Assembly (NCBI GenBank): GCA_027618475.1 | Contig: JAQCEJ010000050.1 | Coordinates: 1 to 37,307, forward strand | Direction of reading: 5' to 3' | Source of the DNA: Planctomycetota bacterium | GTDB lineage: Bacteria > Planctomycetota > Planctomycetia > Planctomycetales > Planctomycetaceae | DNA length: 37,307 nt | Shown here: positions 10,338-17,113 of the stretch, piece by piece | Position numbering within the stretch: position 1 is the first letter of the stretch | Layout of the letters: every line of letters begins with the position of its first letter | Notes under the pieces: model-generated | Seen by the model: the letters and a program-made list of their open reading frames with translations, nothing else | Told to the model about the DNA's origin: nothing | Databases searched by the model: none | Translations under genes and position numbers: made by a program

Positions 10338-12011
10338 TTACCGCGATGTACCCGTTGGCTTGACCGGCGGGGAATAATCACGGTTTTGTTCGTCCTGTTT
10401 CACCTGACGGCCGAGCATGACGTCGGTAAAGCCTTTGAGGTCGGTCCAGAAGGTTCCCTGTCCGGCGTAGAGCAGATTGAGCTTGATATCGTCGGGGAGT
10501 CCCTCGGCGAACACCCATTGGTTGTAGGCTTCGCCACTGCCGAAAGCGTCGACGGCGAGCTGGAATTTCTGCGACTTTGCTTCCTGCATCAGCTTCTCGG
10601 CGTCAGCGCTGGCACGTCCTAACAGCACGACGGCCTGGGCGTCGAGTTCGGCCGTTTCTTTGGCGATCGACGCCACTTTCTGCTGCGTTTCGGCTTTGGT
10701 CTGCTCGGCGGTTTTGTTTCCTTCAGCGATGGCCTCGGCAACTAATTTTGTGGTCTCGAGTTCTGTGCGCTGCGTTTCGAGTTCGACCTTTTGTTCTTCT
10801 TCTCGCAAGTTCGCTTCGGTCTTGGCGGTCAGCTGTTCCTGATCGCGGGTCAGTTTCAGTTCGTTGGCGATGTTCGAGAGTTGTATCGGCACGCGGACTT
10901 CGCGGGGAATGTACATATGCCGTACCAGTCCATACAACAACGACAGATCCTTCTCTTCGAGAACCGATTTGAACGCTTCGGTCGTTTCGTCTTGAAAACT
11001 TTGCCGTGTCTCGCCGACGAGCAGGTCGACCGCGCCGACTTTCGACCCCATATTGCGACAGATACTTTCGATCTGCGGTCCAATGACTTTCGATTCGACA
11101 GCTTCGACGTTGCCGAATTTACGAATGACTTCGGGTGCTTGTTCGGGCAAAATACCCCAGATGGCCGTGAAGTCCATCTGAATTTTGAATCCGTCTTTCG
11201 AAGGGAAGGTGATGCCGCTATCGACGTCGTCGATCATCGGTTCACCGCTTTCGTCGAACTGCAAATCACCGTTCTGATTCGTTTTCAAATTGGCCGTAAG
11301 TGACAGTTCGCGATACCCGATGTTGACGAGATCGACTTTCTGTTCTGCCGGATTGATGGCATAAAGCCCCGGCGGCAGCGTTTGATCTTGAATGCCCTTT
11401 TTGGCACCGGTTTCTGTATCGCCCGTCAAATTGGTAACGACGCCGATATGCCCGGCGGGAATTTCCAGCCAGCCGTTGTGTTGGTTGGTGGTAGTTGCCT
11501 TACCTTCCGGGCTTTTGATGACGTCAAATTTATAGGCGTAATCGTTAATCCGATAGCGTCCGGGACCAAAGACCCGGCGGACGATCCCTTTATGTTTGGT
11601 GGCCCCCAAATCCCCTTCGACGAGAAATTCACCAACAGGTAAATCGGCTCCCATCTTGCTGCTGGCGATGCCGATTTCACCCGGCTTGACTACGAAGTCT
11701 TCTACCAGCTTGCATTCCCACCAGAACGGACTATAAAAATGACGCCCGGGGCCGACCATATTCTCCAGCACACCCACTTCGAGCGGATGGCCGTTGTCGT
11801 CGACTTTGGCAAATGTCCCCGCGGTCGCAGAGACTTTATTGCCCGGCAGGAATGGCAACGGCGGCCCTTTGTATCGCAGTCGCATGCTCATGCCGACCGG
11901 AACATAATGGTAATTGATGGTCCAGTTGATCACTTCGCTTCCCGCCGCCAATCCGGCGACGATCAAGAGTGCAACGATGACCCAGATTTTGTTAAGTTTT
12001 TCGCGGAACAT
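10338..12011 (-). CDS. SPFH/band-7 membrane protein with three N-terminal beta-type repeats
   Basis: The 557-residue protein has one N-terminal membrane helix (about 8-25). Three related units follow (roughly 38-103, 108-165 and 185-232), each with a GxxxP-G-R/L-Y-x-I-N style core (VGPGRHFYSP, FGPGRYRINDY, LPPGLYAINP) and a GVVTNL/GIASSK strand. An SPFH/stomatin-type domain comes next (about 250-400, FPSKDGFKIQMDFTAIWG), then a long Glu/Lys/Ala-rich coiled coil (about 400-490) and a short C-terminal globular end. SPFH proteins oligomerise into membrane scaffolds. The adjacent gene encodes a paralogue of the same design, so a hetero-oligomer is likely. The repeat-SPFH-coiled coil order recalls major vault protein, though that protein lacks a membrane helix. 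Confidence 0.82.
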   Translation of the reverse strand: MFREKLNKIWVIVALLIVAGLAAGSEVINWTINYHYVPVGMSMRLRYKGPPLPFLPGNKVSATAGTFAKVDDNGHPLEVGVLENMVGPGRHFYSPFWWECKLVEDFVVKPGEIGIASSKMGADLPVGEFLVEGDLGATKHKGIVRRVFGPGRYRINDYAYKFDVIKSPEGKATTTNQHNGWLEIPAGHIGVVTNLTGDTETGAKKGIQDQTLPPGLYAINPAEQKVDLVNIGYRELSLTANLKTNQNGDLQFDESGEPMIDDVDSGITFPSKDGFKIQMDFTAIWGILPEQAPEVIRKFGNVEAVESKVIGPQIESICRNMGSKVGAVDLLVGETRQSFQDETTEAFKSVLEEKDLSLLYGLVRHMYIPREVRVPIQLSNIANELKLTRDQEQLTAKTEANLREEEQKVELETQRTELETTKLVAEAIAEGNKTAEQTKAETQQKVASIAKETAELDAQAVVLLGRASADAEKLMQEAKSQKFQLAVDAFGSGEAYNQWVFAEGLPDDIKLNLLYAGQGTFWTDLKGFTDVMLGRQVKQDEQNRDYSPPVKPTGTSR

Positions 12012-12082
12012 GTGTGTTCCTCACATTCTAGATGGAAGTACGATGAGGGATAAAGCATGAGTCAGTGGGGACTCATCGCCCA

Positions 12083-13693
12083 TCAGTCATTCACGCTGCC
12101 GGCGGTTTTCACGTCTGCCCCGCTGACGGGAGCGGTTCCCTTGGCGTCTTCACCGATCTGATCGGGTGAAAACTGATCGAAGATTTTCATGATCGGGCTA
12201 TCGGCGGTATTGACCATAATGTTTTGATACGCCGACGCCAGTTTTTGATATAGCACATATTGCGAGTATTGCCGGCCGTTCCCCGAGAACGCGGCGACGG
12301 CGGCTTTCCAGCCGGCAGCCTCGGCTTCGTTCTGAAATTCGATGACTTCTGCTTCGGCTTTTCCCTTGGCCATGATCGCCGAGGCTTCGTCGGCAGCGGC
12401 GTCGAGCCTGAATTGAGCGACTAATTTCTTCTCGTCGGCTTTAGTAATCGCCACTTCTTGTTCCTGTCTGGCCTTGGTCGTCACCTTGATGACCTCCTGC
12501 TCGGCGCTCACGAGTGCCTGCTTTTGCAGGACGAGTGCTTGTTCGATGGCGAGTTTTTGTTCGGACTCCTGCTGAAGAATCTGCTGCTGAAACTGTTTTT
12601 CAAGCTGCTTGGCGATTTCGCGCTCACGCACCGGCTTGAGAATCTGCTCGGGGGGACTGATCCGCGTGACGAGCGCTTGAACAATTTCTATTCCCTGCGG
12701 CTGACATTCTTCACGCAGTTGATTTTGGAACGATTCTTGAAATTTGCTGCGGTCCCCCATGAATTCGCGACCGAGAATGTTCGAGCCTTGCAAACGGCAG
12801 AAACTTCGCGCGTTCGGCAAAATCACCTTGCTGATGATTTCCTGATCGATATCTTCGCCGTTGTCCATCTCGTTATAGATCACGTACACTTCAGAGGCTT
12901 TTTCAGGCATCACATGAAATTCGATCACGCCGTCGAGGCTGACCCAGAAGCCGTCTTTGGACGGAAAGCCCATATCTTTGTTTTCGGCGAGGTTGAATCG
13001 CTGACTGCGGCAATCGACTAGATTGATCTGCATCACATACGGGTTGACGTAATAGGTTCCCGGATCGAGTGCTTCCTTTTGCACGCCTCGTTCGTCTGGT
13101 TCGGCGAGCATCGAATTCGGCTTCGTCGGCAATTTGCCCGCCAGATTGGTGACCACTCCTTTGAAACCGGCGGGAACCGTCTTCGGCTCGTGAATCTCAA
13201 TCTCGAACAGATACGGATTGATCGGATATCGCCCGGGATTCAGTACCTGGGGAATGATCCCCTTAGTTGTGACGAGGTCGGGGTTCTCGAGGATGTTCTT
13301 ATTCGACTCTTTCAAATGCGCCAGAAATTCACCGTGCGGCAGATCGTCGCCGCAGAGGCTGATCAGTACGCCGAGCTTTCCATTCTCGATCGTTTGTTGT
13401 TCGACGATTTCCCAATCCCAATATAACGGATTGTAAAAGTACCGGCCTTCCGTCAGAACTTTCCGCTGGACTCCCTTGTATTCCGGCGCGGAGATGTCCC
13501 CTGGAGCGATCTCCATGTCGTTGGTTTGATCGTGTCCCGCTTTATAAATCAGCACGGCCAATTGCCCCGTGCCGACATCGATGCGAAACATCGAATAAAA
13601 CATGTAACTGCCGGCGACTAACACCGCGATTCCAAACGTGATGGGAACCCACGACTTGTTGCGGCCCCGTTCCATGAAAATTGTGTGAGACAT
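12083..13693 (-). CDS. SPFH/band-7 membrane protein, paralogue of the downstream gene
   Basis: The 536-residue protein has one membrane helix (about 17-34). Three tandem units lie at about 43-100, 101-170 and 172-230, with matching cores LTEGRYFYNPLYW, LNPGRYPINPYLF and LDPGTYYVNPYVM, alternating with LAVLIY, LGVLIS and GVVTNL strands. The SPFH domain follows (about 235-390, FPSKDGFWVSLDGVIEF), then a Gln/Glu-rich coiled coil (about 375-460, QLEKQFQQQILQQESEQKL) ending in a segment like the flotillin EA-rich tail. It is upstream of its paralogue with a 71-base gap, so the two probably form one operon transcribed from the spacer shared with sthA. No NfeD-type partner gene is present. Confidence 0.82.
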   Translation of the reverse strand: MSHTIFMERGRNKSWVPITFGIAVLVAGSYMFYSMFRIDVGTGQLAVLIYKAGHDQTNDMEIAPGDISAPEYKGVQRKVLTEGRYFYNPLYWDWEIVEQQTIENGKLGVLISLCGDDLPHGEFLAHLKESNKNILENPDLVTTKGIIPQVLNPGRYPINPYLFEIEIHEPKTVPAGFKGVVTNLAGKLPTKPNSMLAEPDERGVQKEALDPGTYYVNPYVMQINLVDCRSQRFNLAENKDMGFPSKDGFWVSLDGVIEFHVMPEKASEVYVIYNEMDNGEDIDQEIISKVILPNARSFCRLQGSNILGREFMGDRSKFQESFQNQLREECQPQGIEIVQALVTRISPPEQILKPVREREIAKQLEKQFQQQILQQESEQKLAIEQALVLQKQALVSAEQEVIKVTTKARQEQEVAITKADEKKLVAQFRLDAAADEASAIMAKGKAEAEVIEFQNEAEAAGWKAAVAAFSGNGRQYSQYVLYQKLASAYQNIMVNTADSPIMKIFDQFSPDQIGEDAKGTAPVSGADVKTAGSVND

Positions 13694-14191
13694 GTGATTT
13701 TCTCTCGGTTAACTGGGAGAGAACTCCGCGGCAGATGTCCGCCTGACTCGGATGTTCGTTTCAATGACGTTCGCTTCTGAGGCATAGAACGCAAGAGTCC
13801 GCCGCGCGGTTCACAAAAATCCGCGGCAGGGTTGGCCTCGACGGAAAAGCTTACGTCAATTCTTCATTCAACGCATTCATCGGACAAAAGATTGTCCGCA
13901 AGCTCTTCGAAGTCTCGTGATTTTTACTGACTAGAAGAGTCGCCAGTCCACTTGACGGATTGTAACGATCGCAACGGCATATTTACACCGTCAAAACGCT
14001 ACAACCGTCATTCTTCACGAAGTCTCAGCACTCTTACTACAAATCATTATCTTTTCATCTTCGCCAGTTCAACATTTGTTCGATGTAAGTCCTACAAACA
14101 AGAACTCCCATGCACAAACGGCTGGTCGCCTGCAAATTTGATCCGACTCGTCCGTTTCTCTTTTCCTTCATCGTTTGATTCAGGTGCACAG
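13694..14191. other. 498-base divergent promoter region between the SPFH pair and sthA
   Basis: The spacer must hold both outward promoters. It contains a short hairpin word, GGACA and TGTCC, around 13881-13897. The sthA frame is open back to 13952, but that part is rich in Ser/Thr/Arg, has no fold and is not credible protein. A TTGACG near 13965 has no well-spaced -10 partner, so no promoter is called. Nothing else is recognised. Confidence 0.4.
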
Positions 14192-15790
14192 ATGACATAC
14201 GACTTGATCGTGATCGGCAGCGGGCCCGCAGGACAAAAGGCAGCGATTGCCGCCACAAAACTCGGCAAGAAAGTGGCGATCATCGAACGTCAGAAATCGC
14301 TGATGGGGGGCGTCTGCCTGCACACCGGCACCATCCCCTCAAAAACGATGCGTGAAGCCATTCTGCATCTCACCGGTTACCGCCAGCGCGACGTCTACGC
14401 CGAACAATACCGCCGCAAGCGCTCGATCACCATGAACGACCTCCGCCGTAAACTCGCGCATGTCACGCAGCTCGAACTCGAAGTCATTCACGACCAACTC
14501 GAACGCAATGGCGTCGATTTCTTCTCGGGACAAGCCCGTCTTGCCAGCCCGCATCATGTCGAAGTCCATTCGTCTGAGGGCGGCACGCAAGTCCTTACCG
14601 GCGATTACCTGATGCTCTGCTGCGGCACAAAACCTGCCCGGCCCGATCACATCCCCTTTGACGGAAAGTGCGTTTTTGATTCAGACGAAATCCTGAACAT
14701 CGAACGAATTCCCCGCTCGATGATTGTCGTCGGTGGTGGGGTGATCGGCATCGAATATGCCATCATGTTCGCCACGCTCGGCGTGCAAGTAACTGTCGTC
14801 GACGGCCGCGAACGACTGCTTGAATTCTGCGATCGCGAAATCGTCGATACGCTGCTGCATCATGCCCGTTCGTTAAATATGACGTTCCGCCTCGGCGAAG
14901 AAGTGGTCGGCATGGAACTCCGCGGCGAACAGCTCGCTGCCGTGCATCTCGAAAGCGGAAAACGCCTGATTGCCGAGACTGTGCTCTACAGCATTGGACG
15001 AGTGGGTGACACCGACGACCTGAATCTCGCCGCCGCCGGCCTCGAACCCGATGAACGAGGCCGGTTGTGGTGCAACGAGTTTCACCAGACCTGGGTGTCG
15101 CACATCTACGGTGCGGGCGACGTCGTCGGCTTCCCCGCCCTAGCCAGCGTCTCGCAGGAACAAGGTCGCCGCGCCATCTGTCACGCCTTCGGGACCAAAT
15201 TCGAAGCCTGCGAACACATGCCGTACGGTCTGTTCACGATTCCTGAAATCTCGATGGTCGGCAAAACCGAGCAACAACTCACCGCCGACAAAATCCCCTA
15301 CGAAGTCGGGATTGCCCGTTACCGCGAAATCGCCCGCGGCACGATCGCCGGCGATCAGCACGGCATGTTGAAACTCTTGTTCCATCGCGAAACCCGCAAG
15401 CTGCTCGGCATTCACTGCATCGGTGAAATGGCGACCGAAATCATTCACATCGGACAGGCCGTGCTCGCGCTGGGCGGCACGATCGACTACTTCCGCGATA
15501 CCGTCTTCAATTATCCGACGATGGCCGAGTGCTACAAAGTCGCAGCGTTCGACGGCTTGAAGAAGTTGAGCTACGACTGCGAACCGTGTGGTGCGATTAC
15601 GAGTGTCGATGCCGATATCAACGACTACGTCGCCGTCTCGTCGCGAAAAGCATCTGGGGACAACACAACCTTCACCGTTCGCCGCGAAGTGAAACGCGAA
15701 TTGATCGTCACCGGCGAAACGACCGAATCGCTCGAAACAGTGCCGCAGTCGGTCGATAGTGGAGCAGAGGCCGACGAAGTAGTCGTCTAA
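14192..15790 (+). CDS. sthA: SthA-like soluble pyridine nucleotide transhydrogenase with C-terminal extension
   Basis: The 532-residue FAD protein would move hydride between NADPH and NAD+. The start MTYDLIVIGSGPAGQKAA begins the FAD-binding Rossmann motif and has CAGGTG upstream. The active-site segment reads GGVCLHTGTIPSKTMREA: Cys42 is kept, but the second redox cysteine of lipoamide dehydrogenases is Thr47, as in SthA. The NAD(P) fold (VVGGGVIGIEYA) and dimer domain (IHCIGEMATEIIHIGQ, NYPTMAECYKVAAFDG) follow. The core ends near residue 470; about 60 extra residues, acidic and Ser/Thr-rich, are beyond the usual 466-residue length. A less specific flavoprotein disulphide reductase is the alternative. 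Its stop touches the stop of the opposite gene. Confidence 0.85.
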   Translation: MTYDLIVIGSGPAGQKAAIAATKLGKKVAIIERQKSLMGGVCLHTGTIPSKTMREAILHLTGYRQRDVYAEQYRRKRSITMNDLRRKLAHVTQLELEVIHDQLERNGVDFFSGQARLASPHHVEVHSSEGGTQVLTGDYLMLCCGTKPARPDHIPFDGKCVFDSDEILNIERIPRSMIVVGGGVIGIEYAIMFATLGVQVTVVDGRERLLEFCDREIVDTLLHHARSLNMTFRLGEEVVGMELRGEQLAAVHLESGKRLIAETVLYSIGRVGDTDDLNLAAAGLEPDERGRLWCNEFHQTWVSHIYGAGDVVGFPALASVSQEQGRRAICHAFGTKFEACEHMPYGLFTIPEISMVGKTEQQLTADKIPYEVGIARYREIARGTIAGDQHGMLKLLFHRETRKLLGIHCIGEMATEIIHIGQAVLALGGTIDYFRDTVFNYPTMAECYKVAAFDGLKKLSYDCEPCGAITSVDADINDYVAVSSRKASGDNTTFTVRREVKRELIVTGETTESLETVPQSVDSGAEADEVVV

Positions 15791-17113
15791 TTAAGGAAAC
15801 GTCAGTTTGCGTAACTGTCGCTTTCCGTCGCGAATGAGTGCGATCTCGACCACCTTTCTCGAACGATAATTCCGAACAGCATAGGCCAGGAGATCGGTTT
15901 CTCGGTTCAAGTCGTCCTTGCCGTCGAATGCGACAATGACGTCTTCCTTCTGAAAACCTGCAAGGTGGGCCACATTGTGCGGCGGGTAGAGACCCAAATG
16001 TTCGACGCGCAGCGCCATGGCATCCGCTGGAAGCTTTAGAGACTGTCGTTGCTCCGCTGTCACGGGTTTAACGATCATCCCGCCCGCCACGAAACGTCGT
16101 AACTCCCAACTCGAAACACGCCACGCAATGTCATCTTTCTCGCGCCAACCATCGGTAAGTTCGAGGACCAGCGAGATACGCTCGCCATCGTGTTCCACAA
16201 CCGCATCGATTTTCTCTCCCTCTGGGGAGGAGTGATGAAGTACCCATTGCACATCGGCGATCGATAGCAACGGCTGTCCTTTCAGCGAAATGAGTCGGTC
16301 CTCCCCGCGAAAGCCCGATCGAGCTGCAGGGGAGTCATCAATGACGCGTTGCACGGTCGCCTTCGCATCAGGATCGAGAATCAACCCAACGGCTTTCGGA
16401 TGCGGGTAGGAAAACAGTAACTGATCGGGAATCATCTCTCCCCGATCGAGATACGACAGCCGACGTGAATCGCCGATTTGATGGCAATGAATGCAACTCG
16501 CGACGACGTCTCCTTCGTAGTTAAGCGTCGCCTTGTATTTCTCCTTCAGCGTCGGAAACTTTTCGGGTGAAGGATAGTCGGGTTTCGGTCCGCGTTTGGC
16601 CGCAAGCATCTTCTTGTTTCGCGGATAATCCCTATGCAGTTCGAGCGCCCCAGCGAGCGCCTGACCCAAACCCTTAAACGAAACGTCTTCCTGCCATTCC
16701 GTCCGATGCGACCGCGTACCGAACCGTCCGTAAATGGTACCGTCGGCATTGAGGAAGAACATCACGAACGATTGGTCGGTATCAAACTGAAATGTTGACA
16801 GGTCGAGCCCGTTGGTCGAGACGATTCTCACGCGGACGAACTGGTCAAGCAGATTGCGCAACGTTTCATCGTTATGAATCAACTCTTCGTCGAGCTTTAC
16901 GCACTGTTCACAGGGAAGACAACGCAACGTCACGACGAGCGGCCTGCCGGTTTTTTTGGCCTCGGCCTTCCCCTTGGCGAAATCGCCGTAGATCCAATAC
17001 CCCTCGGCTTCGACCTTCACTTTGTCGTCGCGGACTTTGCTTTCGCGATCGGCACCACCGACATTCGCCCCAAACAACATCACCAGAAACACAAAAATTG
17101 TGGATATTCGCAT
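15791..17113 (-). CDS. secreted thioredoxin-fold / CXXCH / PDZ protein
   Basis: The 440-residue protein has a signal peptide (about 1-21). A thioredoxin-like domain (about 38-165) carries [12 protein letters not shown] (Cys65, Cys68, Cys71) where the active-site CXXC is expected. [11 protein letters not shown] (Cys207, Cys210, His211) follows, a c-type haem attachment motif, though the rest of a cytochrome c domain is not evident. Two PDZ-like domains come next (about 245-330 and 360-440: [18 protein letters not shown] and [20 protein letters not shown]). It probably works in the periplasm in redox handling or protein quality control. The stop lies directly against that of sthA with no spacer. 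I know of no characterised protein with this combination. The haem is inferred from the motif. Confidence 0.78.

What the first reader, a model, noticed from the sequence alone, without database searches (positions are those of the whole stretch)
10338..13693. Tandem SPFH proteins with a vault-like domain order
Seen: both proteins have three internal units with a G-R/T/L-Y-x-x-N core before the SPFH domain, then a long coiled coil and a short tail. Known: major vault protein has N-terminal beta repeats, an SPFH-like shoulder and a long cap helix. Inference: the pair may form a membrane-tethered, barrel-like or ring-like hetero-oligomer, of interest in planctomycetes with their complex membranes. 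The N-terminal helix differs from vault protein and no NfeD partner is present.
Basis: partly seen in the sequence, partly recalled or inferred. Interest (0 to 1): 0.6.

Follow-up and report, generated by a model that had tools for sequence, protein, structure and literature searches.

The report
Membrane-anchored vault-like SPFH protein pair
Two neighbouring planctomycete genes encode a conserved pair of membrane-anchored scaffold proteins whose predicted shape matches the wall-and-cap part of the eukaryotic vault particle, which suggests that vault-style walls also exist in ordinary membrane-bound bacterial scaffold proteins.

Summary
A (12083-13693, 536 aa) and B (10338-12011, 557 aa) each have an N-terminal TM helix, three homologous ~60-residue beta units, an SPFH2 domain and a ~120-residue helix. 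Correction: the third unit is the ordinary first half (SPFH1) of the Band_7 domain, so each protein carries two extra SPFH1 copies between membrane and SPFH domain. AlphaFold models (pLDDT 80-82) show three five-strand units. Aligned to solved MVP, model A residues 34-385 match MVP 323-683 (268 residues, 4.6 A, Z 11.6); prohibitins score higher (Z 15) but cover only unit 3 onward. By sequence they are not MVP: no Vault or MVP_shoulder match, while genuine planctomycete MVPs do match. A lies directly upstream of B in 75 of 75 loci with room; both form ancient separate clades; no NfeD neighbour. Single-gene relatives carry 3-5 units. Strong HflK and the A/B pair rarely co-occur (2 seen, 9.5 expected). 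Best reading: a membrane-anchored, probably periplasm-facing, heteromeric SPFH half-cage raised on a vault-like beta wall, with an HflK/C-type role. Assembly and function are inferred. New variant of a known kind; [quoted passage not shown]

The parts
12083..13693 (-). gene A, 536 aa, tandem-SPFH1 SPFH protein (upstream gene of the pair)
   Evidence: ORF; Band_7 8.1e-30 at residues 172-377; model pLDDT 80.1
13586..13651 (-). A: transmembrane helix, residues 15-36
   Evidence: helix in model; hydrophobic segment in 60 of 65 relatives and N-side positive charge excess in 55 of 65
13400..13585 (-). A: extra SPFH1-like beta unit 1, residues 37-98
13190..13396 (-). A: extra SPFH1-like beta unit 2, residues 100-168
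13013..13183 (-). A: unit 3, residues 171-227, the canonical SPFH1 half of Band_7
   Evidence: Pfam Band_7 starts at 172
12650..13012 (-). A: SPFH2 alpha/beta domain, residues 228-348
   Evidence: stomatin, prohibitin and MVP shoulder alignments
12290..12649 (-). A: long helix, residues 349-468 (cap-helix/CC1-like; its second half has low pLDDT)
12083..12289 (-). A: C-terminal tail with conserved NTADSPIMKIF motif
   Evidence: alignment A3
12012..12082 (-). 71-nt A-B intergenic gap with GAGG-type ribosome site before B
   Evidence: sequence
10338..12011 (-). gene B, 557 aa, paralogous tandem-SPFH1 SPFH protein
   Evidence: ORF; Band_7 8.7e-22 at 183-400; 29% identical to A, E 5e-48; model pLDDT 82.5
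11919..12008 (-). B: transmembrane helix, residues 2-31
11700..11912 (-). B: extra beta unit 1, residues 34-104 (diverged core GRHFYS)
11514..11696 (-). B: extra beta unit 2, residues 106-166
11322..11474 (-). B: unit 3, residues 180-230, the canonical SPFH1 half of Band_7
10911..11318 (-). B: SPFH2 domain, residues 232-367
10542..10904 (-). B: long helix, residues 370-490 (second half low pLDDT)
10338..10541 (-). B: C-terminal tail with conserved GTFWTDLKGF motif
   Evidence: alignment A4

Best explanation
A and B are the two obligate subunits of a membrane-anchored SPFH scaffold. Each subunit runs: cytoplasmic N-terminus, TM helix, two extra SPFH1-type beta modules, SPFH1, SPFH2, long coiled-coil helix, C-terminal closing motif. 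As in other SPFH complexes, A and B most likely alternate in a large ring that forms a domed half-cage on the inner membrane, facing the periplasm like HflK/C. The two extra modules stack like the last MVP repeats into a beta wall that lifts the dome away from the bilayer and enlarges the enclosed chamber. Its job is probably to corral a patch of membrane and membrane proteins, with gating of a protease such as FtsH, and to stand in for HflK/C in lineages that lack it. Shown: genes, unit homology, TM, predicted fold, conserved pairing, ancient duplication, structural match to MVP. Inferred: oligomer, alternation, orientation, wall height, HflK/C-like role.
For: Unit homology above shuffled controls. 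Models with three five-strand units, SPFH2 and a long helix. MVP aligned across A 34-385 with 268 residues at 4.6 A, Z 11.6; SPFH2 plus the helix part supply at most about 150 of these, so at least about 115 lie in the unit region. B 34-434 aligns with 309 residues at 7.4 A, Z 10.3. Prohibitins align only from unit 3 onward, Z 15. A directly upstream of B in 75 of 75 loci with room, gaps mostly under 110 nt, many -4 overlaps. A and B clades are separate, and six deep pairs each place one member in each clade. No other conserved neighbour except a divergent sthA in 16 of 80 loci. N-side positive charge. Two FtsH genes in the genome. A/B and strong HflK co-occur in 2 genomes against 9.5 expected, P 0.0013; genus level P 0.008; within the own family 1 against 4.05, P 0.023.
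Against: No oligomer was predicted. The second half of the long helix and the tail are low-confidence. Avoidance of HflK could be a lineage effect, since genomes are not independent, and two genomes carry both. The genome has other SPFH genes that could fill the HflK/C role. MVP Z values (10-12) are below prohibitin Z values, and MVP rmsd is large in most rows once the flexible helix is included.
Confidence: 0.6

Rival explanations
1. Ordinary HflK/HflC- or prohibitin-type pair; the extra N-terminal units are a decorative spacer with no vault relation, and the MVP match only reflects the shared SPFH fold.
For: Prohibitin gives the best Z (15) and the best PDB profile hit (A: 8e-4); pairing, topology and HflK avoidance fit an HflK/C replacement.
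Against: Units 1-2 are homologous copies of SPFH1, not an unrelated spacer; only MVP aligns over them together with SPFH2; no HflK or HflC NCBIfam hit.
Confidence: 0.25
2. Evolutionary cousin of the vault: MVP repeats and these units descend from the same SPFH1 amplification, so the pair is a membrane-bound relative of the vault ancestor.
For: Structural correspondence of the three units to MVP from residue 323 up to its shoulder; a copy-number series of 1, 3, 4 and 5 units in bacterial SPFH proteins; true MVPs occur in Planctomycetota, and 5 of 6 such genomes also carry the pair.
Against: No sequence or profile similarity between the units and planctomycete MVP repeats; independent amplification of SPFH1 would give the same picture; co-occurrence is clustered in few lineages.
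Confidence: 0.3
3. Cytoplasm-facing flotillin-like microdomain scaffold acting alone, unrelated to proteolysis.
For: Many bacterial SPFH proteins are flotillin-like; no conserved protease neighbour.
Against: N-in/C-out charge bias; no NfeD partner of the kind flotillin and stomatin operons have; structural match to flotillin weaker than to prohibitin.
Confidence: 0.15

Closest known systems
Prohibitin PHB1/PHB2 and Erlin1/2 complexes
   Same: Paired paralogues, N-terminal TM, SPFH1-SPFH2-long helix; prohibitin gives the best structural Z (15), from unit 3 to the helix
   Different: One SPFH1 only, no two extra units; weak sequence similarity (8e-4 for A; B only one weak prohibitin match, 0.27)
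HflK/HflC (SPFH3a/b)
   Same: Adjacent paralogous gene pair, N-terminal TM, periplasmic-type charge pattern; genomes tend to have one or the other
   Different: No HflK/HflC family hit; HflK/C have one SPFH1; standalone HflK genes found here are mostly about 330-400 aa
Major vault protein
   Same: Several beta modules, then SPFH/shoulder, then long helix; A 34-385 on MVP 323-683 at 4.6 A over 268 residues
   Different: Nine repeats, no TM, single gene, Pfam Vault/MVP_shoulder sequence families; vaults are closed double cages
Single-gene multi-unit SPFH proteins of Planctomycetota (L171, L172, L173, L174, L030-L032)
   Same: Hydrophobic N-terminus, 3-5 SPFH1-type units, SPFH2, long helix
   Different: Not members of the A/B pair; form a separate clade from A/B; up to 794 aa
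SPFH11a/b of the 2009 prokaryotic survey (PMC2636767)
   Same: Always-adjacent pair, found in 1 of 3 planctomycetes then examined
   Different: SPFH11b was reported to lack the coiled coil; I saw no repeat region reported; sequences not compared here

Membership tests
SPFH / Band_7 superfamily | Pfam Band_7 domain above the gathering score | tested here: met
   A 104.6 bits, B 78.4 bits, cut-off 23.6
SPFH / Band_7 superfamily | SPFH1-SPFH2 followed by a long helix | tested here: met
   models and alignments to stomatin and prohibitin
SPFH / Band_7 superfamily | Assembly into ring or half-cage | not testable with these tools
   no multimer prediction available
HflK/HflC | Match to the curated HflK/HflC models | tested here: not met
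   no HflK or HflC hit at E up to 5
HflK/HflC | Adjacent paralogous pair with N-terminal TM | tested here: met
   75 of 75 loci; TM
HflK/HflC | FtsH binding | not testable with these tools
   FtsH genes present in the genome; binding untested
Major vault protein | Pfam MVP_shoulder and Vault repeat sequence models | tested here: not met
   no hit at E up to 5; positive control: three planctomycete MVPs hit PF11978 at 1e-19 to 1e-29
Major vault protein | Beta repeats, SPFH/shoulder and long cap helix in this order | tested here: met
Major vault protein | Nine repeats and no membrane anchor | tested here: not met
   three units and a TM helix
Flotillin/stomatin with NfeD operon | NfeD partner gene in the operon | tested here: not met
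   no conserved neighbour besides the pair itself

The most novel reading that the evidence does not exclude
Bacterial membrane-anchored half-vaults: SPFH1 modules were amplified (3, 4, 5 copies) to build beta walls on membrane SPFH cages, and the eukaryotic vault is the soluble, fully extended end of the same series. MVP repeats would then be SPFH1 domains by descent.
Probability: 0.3. Interest if true: 0.85.

Novelty: new variant of a known kind. Interest (0 to 1): 0.6.

Why it matters
[quoted passage not shown] This pair, and relatives with up to five units, appear to carry both: a membrane anchor and vault-type stacked beta modules. That gives a concrete, testable model for how vault walls could arise and offers small, expressible bacterial proteins for studying them. 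It also names a possible HflK/C substitute in a phylum known for unusual membranes.

Tried and rejected
MVP by sequence: hhalign of units and whole profiles against six planctomycete MVPs found nothing convincing (best: B profile 6.6e-4, probability 27%, in the SPFH2-helix-tail part). Solved-structure sequence search gave only weak prohibitin and HflC hits for A and none significant for B. Neighbourhood function: no conserved gene other than the pair, so ribBA and sthA were rejected as partners. Plasmid collection: only three weak SPFH hits. Disulphide idea: A C228, C299 and C330 and B C318 are near-invariant but no pairing was inferred. Literature searches found no report of multi-unit SPFH1 proteins; the library holds open-licence papers only. 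An apparent 500-residue N-terminal extension of B homologues in L166/L167 has no credible start and looks like read-through of an overlapping frame (the sequence is low-complexity R/P/A-rich, and a normal TM start follows it), so it was not counted as a domain.

Full report
The two genes and their products. A (12083-13693, minus strand, 536 aa) lies 71 nt upstream of B (10338-12011, 557 aa). Both match Pfam Band_7 (A 8.1e-30, B 8.7e-22) and no Vault model at E up to 5. NCBIfam gives nothing credible. They are paralogues, 29% identical over 464 columns, E 5e-48.

The repeat units. Sliced family alignments show that the three units in each protein are homologous by profile-profile comparison: A1-A2 1.5e-14, A1-A3 2e-10, A2-A3 1e-9, B2-B3 2.5e-8, B1-B2 1.2e-6, A2-B2 1e-18. 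The within-protein pairs other than B1-B3 scored 35-70 against at most 18 in 60 column shuffles each. B1-B3 is linked only through B2. Pfam Band_7 starts at the third unit (A172, B183), so unit 3 is the normal SPFH1, and units 1 and 2 are extra copies placed between the TM helix and SPFH1.

Structure. AlphaFold2 models built on 65 and 72 homologues have mean pLDDT 80.1 (A) and 82.5 (B), mostly above 90 through the TM helix, the three units and SPFH2; the distal helix and tail are low. Each unit has about five short strands. Foldseek ranks human MVP first for A (5e-12) and second for B (6e-11), next to prohibitins. VIA-align gives prohibitin Z 15.3-15.7, but only from about residue 165 onward. 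MVP gives Z 10-12 with alignments that in many rows begin at residue 34-37 of the models and 322-323 of MVP. The clearest is A 34-385 on MVP 323-683, 268 residues at 4.6 A (9mxv_A); for B, 34-434 on MVP 323-713, 309 residues at 7.4 A (6bp7). SPFH2 plus the helix part can supply at most about 150 of the 268 residues, so the beta units contribute over 110 of them. That these MVP residues are the last three repeats, the shoulder and the start of the cap helix follows from domain boundaries as I know them, not from a tool.

Membership. Six genuine MVPs were found in 294 Planctomycetota genomes; the three scanned match MVP_shoulder and Vault_3. A and B do not. Profile comparison of the units with these MVPs gives nothing, and whole-profile comparison is not convincing. 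So the pair is shaped like the wall-shoulder-cap part of a vault, but is not an MVP by sequence; common descent of the repeats remains open.

Distribution and pairing. A genome scan gave 80 loci, nearly all labelled planctomycete (a few records carry other labels, for example L110, Lentisphaeria). A lies directly upstream of B in every one of the 75 loci with room; in the other five B is at a contig edge. Nothing else is conserved nearby apart from a divergent sthA in 16. In a 392-genome phylum sample, 49 genomes match the B profile at E 1e-50 or better. A maximum-likelihood tree puts A and B in separate clades (support 94/86 and 100/97), and six deeply diverged pairs each contribute one member to each clade. 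Single-gene multi-unit SPFH proteins form the other side of the midpoint-rooted tree. A unit HMM finds 3 units in L173 and L174, 4 in L172 and 5 in L171 (two of the L171 hits weak), and about 4 partial ones in the 770-790 aa proteins L031 and L032. Units in A and B match this HMM by construction; those relatives do not.

Function. The N-terminal side of the TM carries more positive charge in 55 of 65 A and 52 of 72 B sequences, which suggests an exoplasmic ectodomain as in HflK/C. The genome has two FtsH genes and no HflK above the curated cut-off. Across 392 genomes, strong HflK (76) and the A/B pair (49) overlap in 2 against 9.5 expected (Fisher P 0.0013; genus level 0.008; within the own family 1 against 4.05, P 0.023). 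This is not corrected for phylogeny. Taken with the obligate pairing, it makes an HflK/C-like, FtsH-linked membrane quality-control or scaffold role the leading guess.

Literature. The 2009 prokaryotic survey (PMC2636767) lists no HflK/C in three planctomycetes and an always-adjacent SPFH11a/b pair in one; whether A/B equals SPFH11 was not tested. PMC13100048 calls MVP domains unique to the vault. I found no paper describing tandem SPFH1 units.

Verdict. The vault-like inference is supported at the level of predicted structure, not sequence; assembly and function are unproven.

Noticed in passing
own genome contig C190, about 53988-57310 (loci L036-L038): An ORF of about 1148 aa fuses a heavy-metal P-type ATPase (CPC, DKTGT, GDGINDAP motifs) to an HflK-like SPFH domain, followed by two more HflK/C-like genes; ORFs of similar size with HflK-like matches recur in many relatives.
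   Followed up: partly
L159-L164: Genuine MVP homologues with MVP_shoulder occur in 6 of 294 Planctomycetota genomes; 5 of these 6 also carry an A/B-type match (Fisher P 0.0005, not corrected for phylogeny).
   Followed up: partly
L171, L172, L030-L032: Single-gene SPFH proteins with about four or five SPFH1-type units in tandem.
   Followed up: partly
window 13952-15790: sthA-like pyridine nucleotide-disulphide oxidoreductase divergent from the pair; also next to it in 16 of 80 loci.
   Followed up: no
window 15791-17113: Thioredoxin-like protein with a PDZ domain (Pfam Thioredoxin_7 and PDZ_2).
   Followed up: no
L175: A B-type homologue with an insertion of about 250 residues inside its third unit (unit HMM match split between residues 307 and 557).
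   Followed up: no
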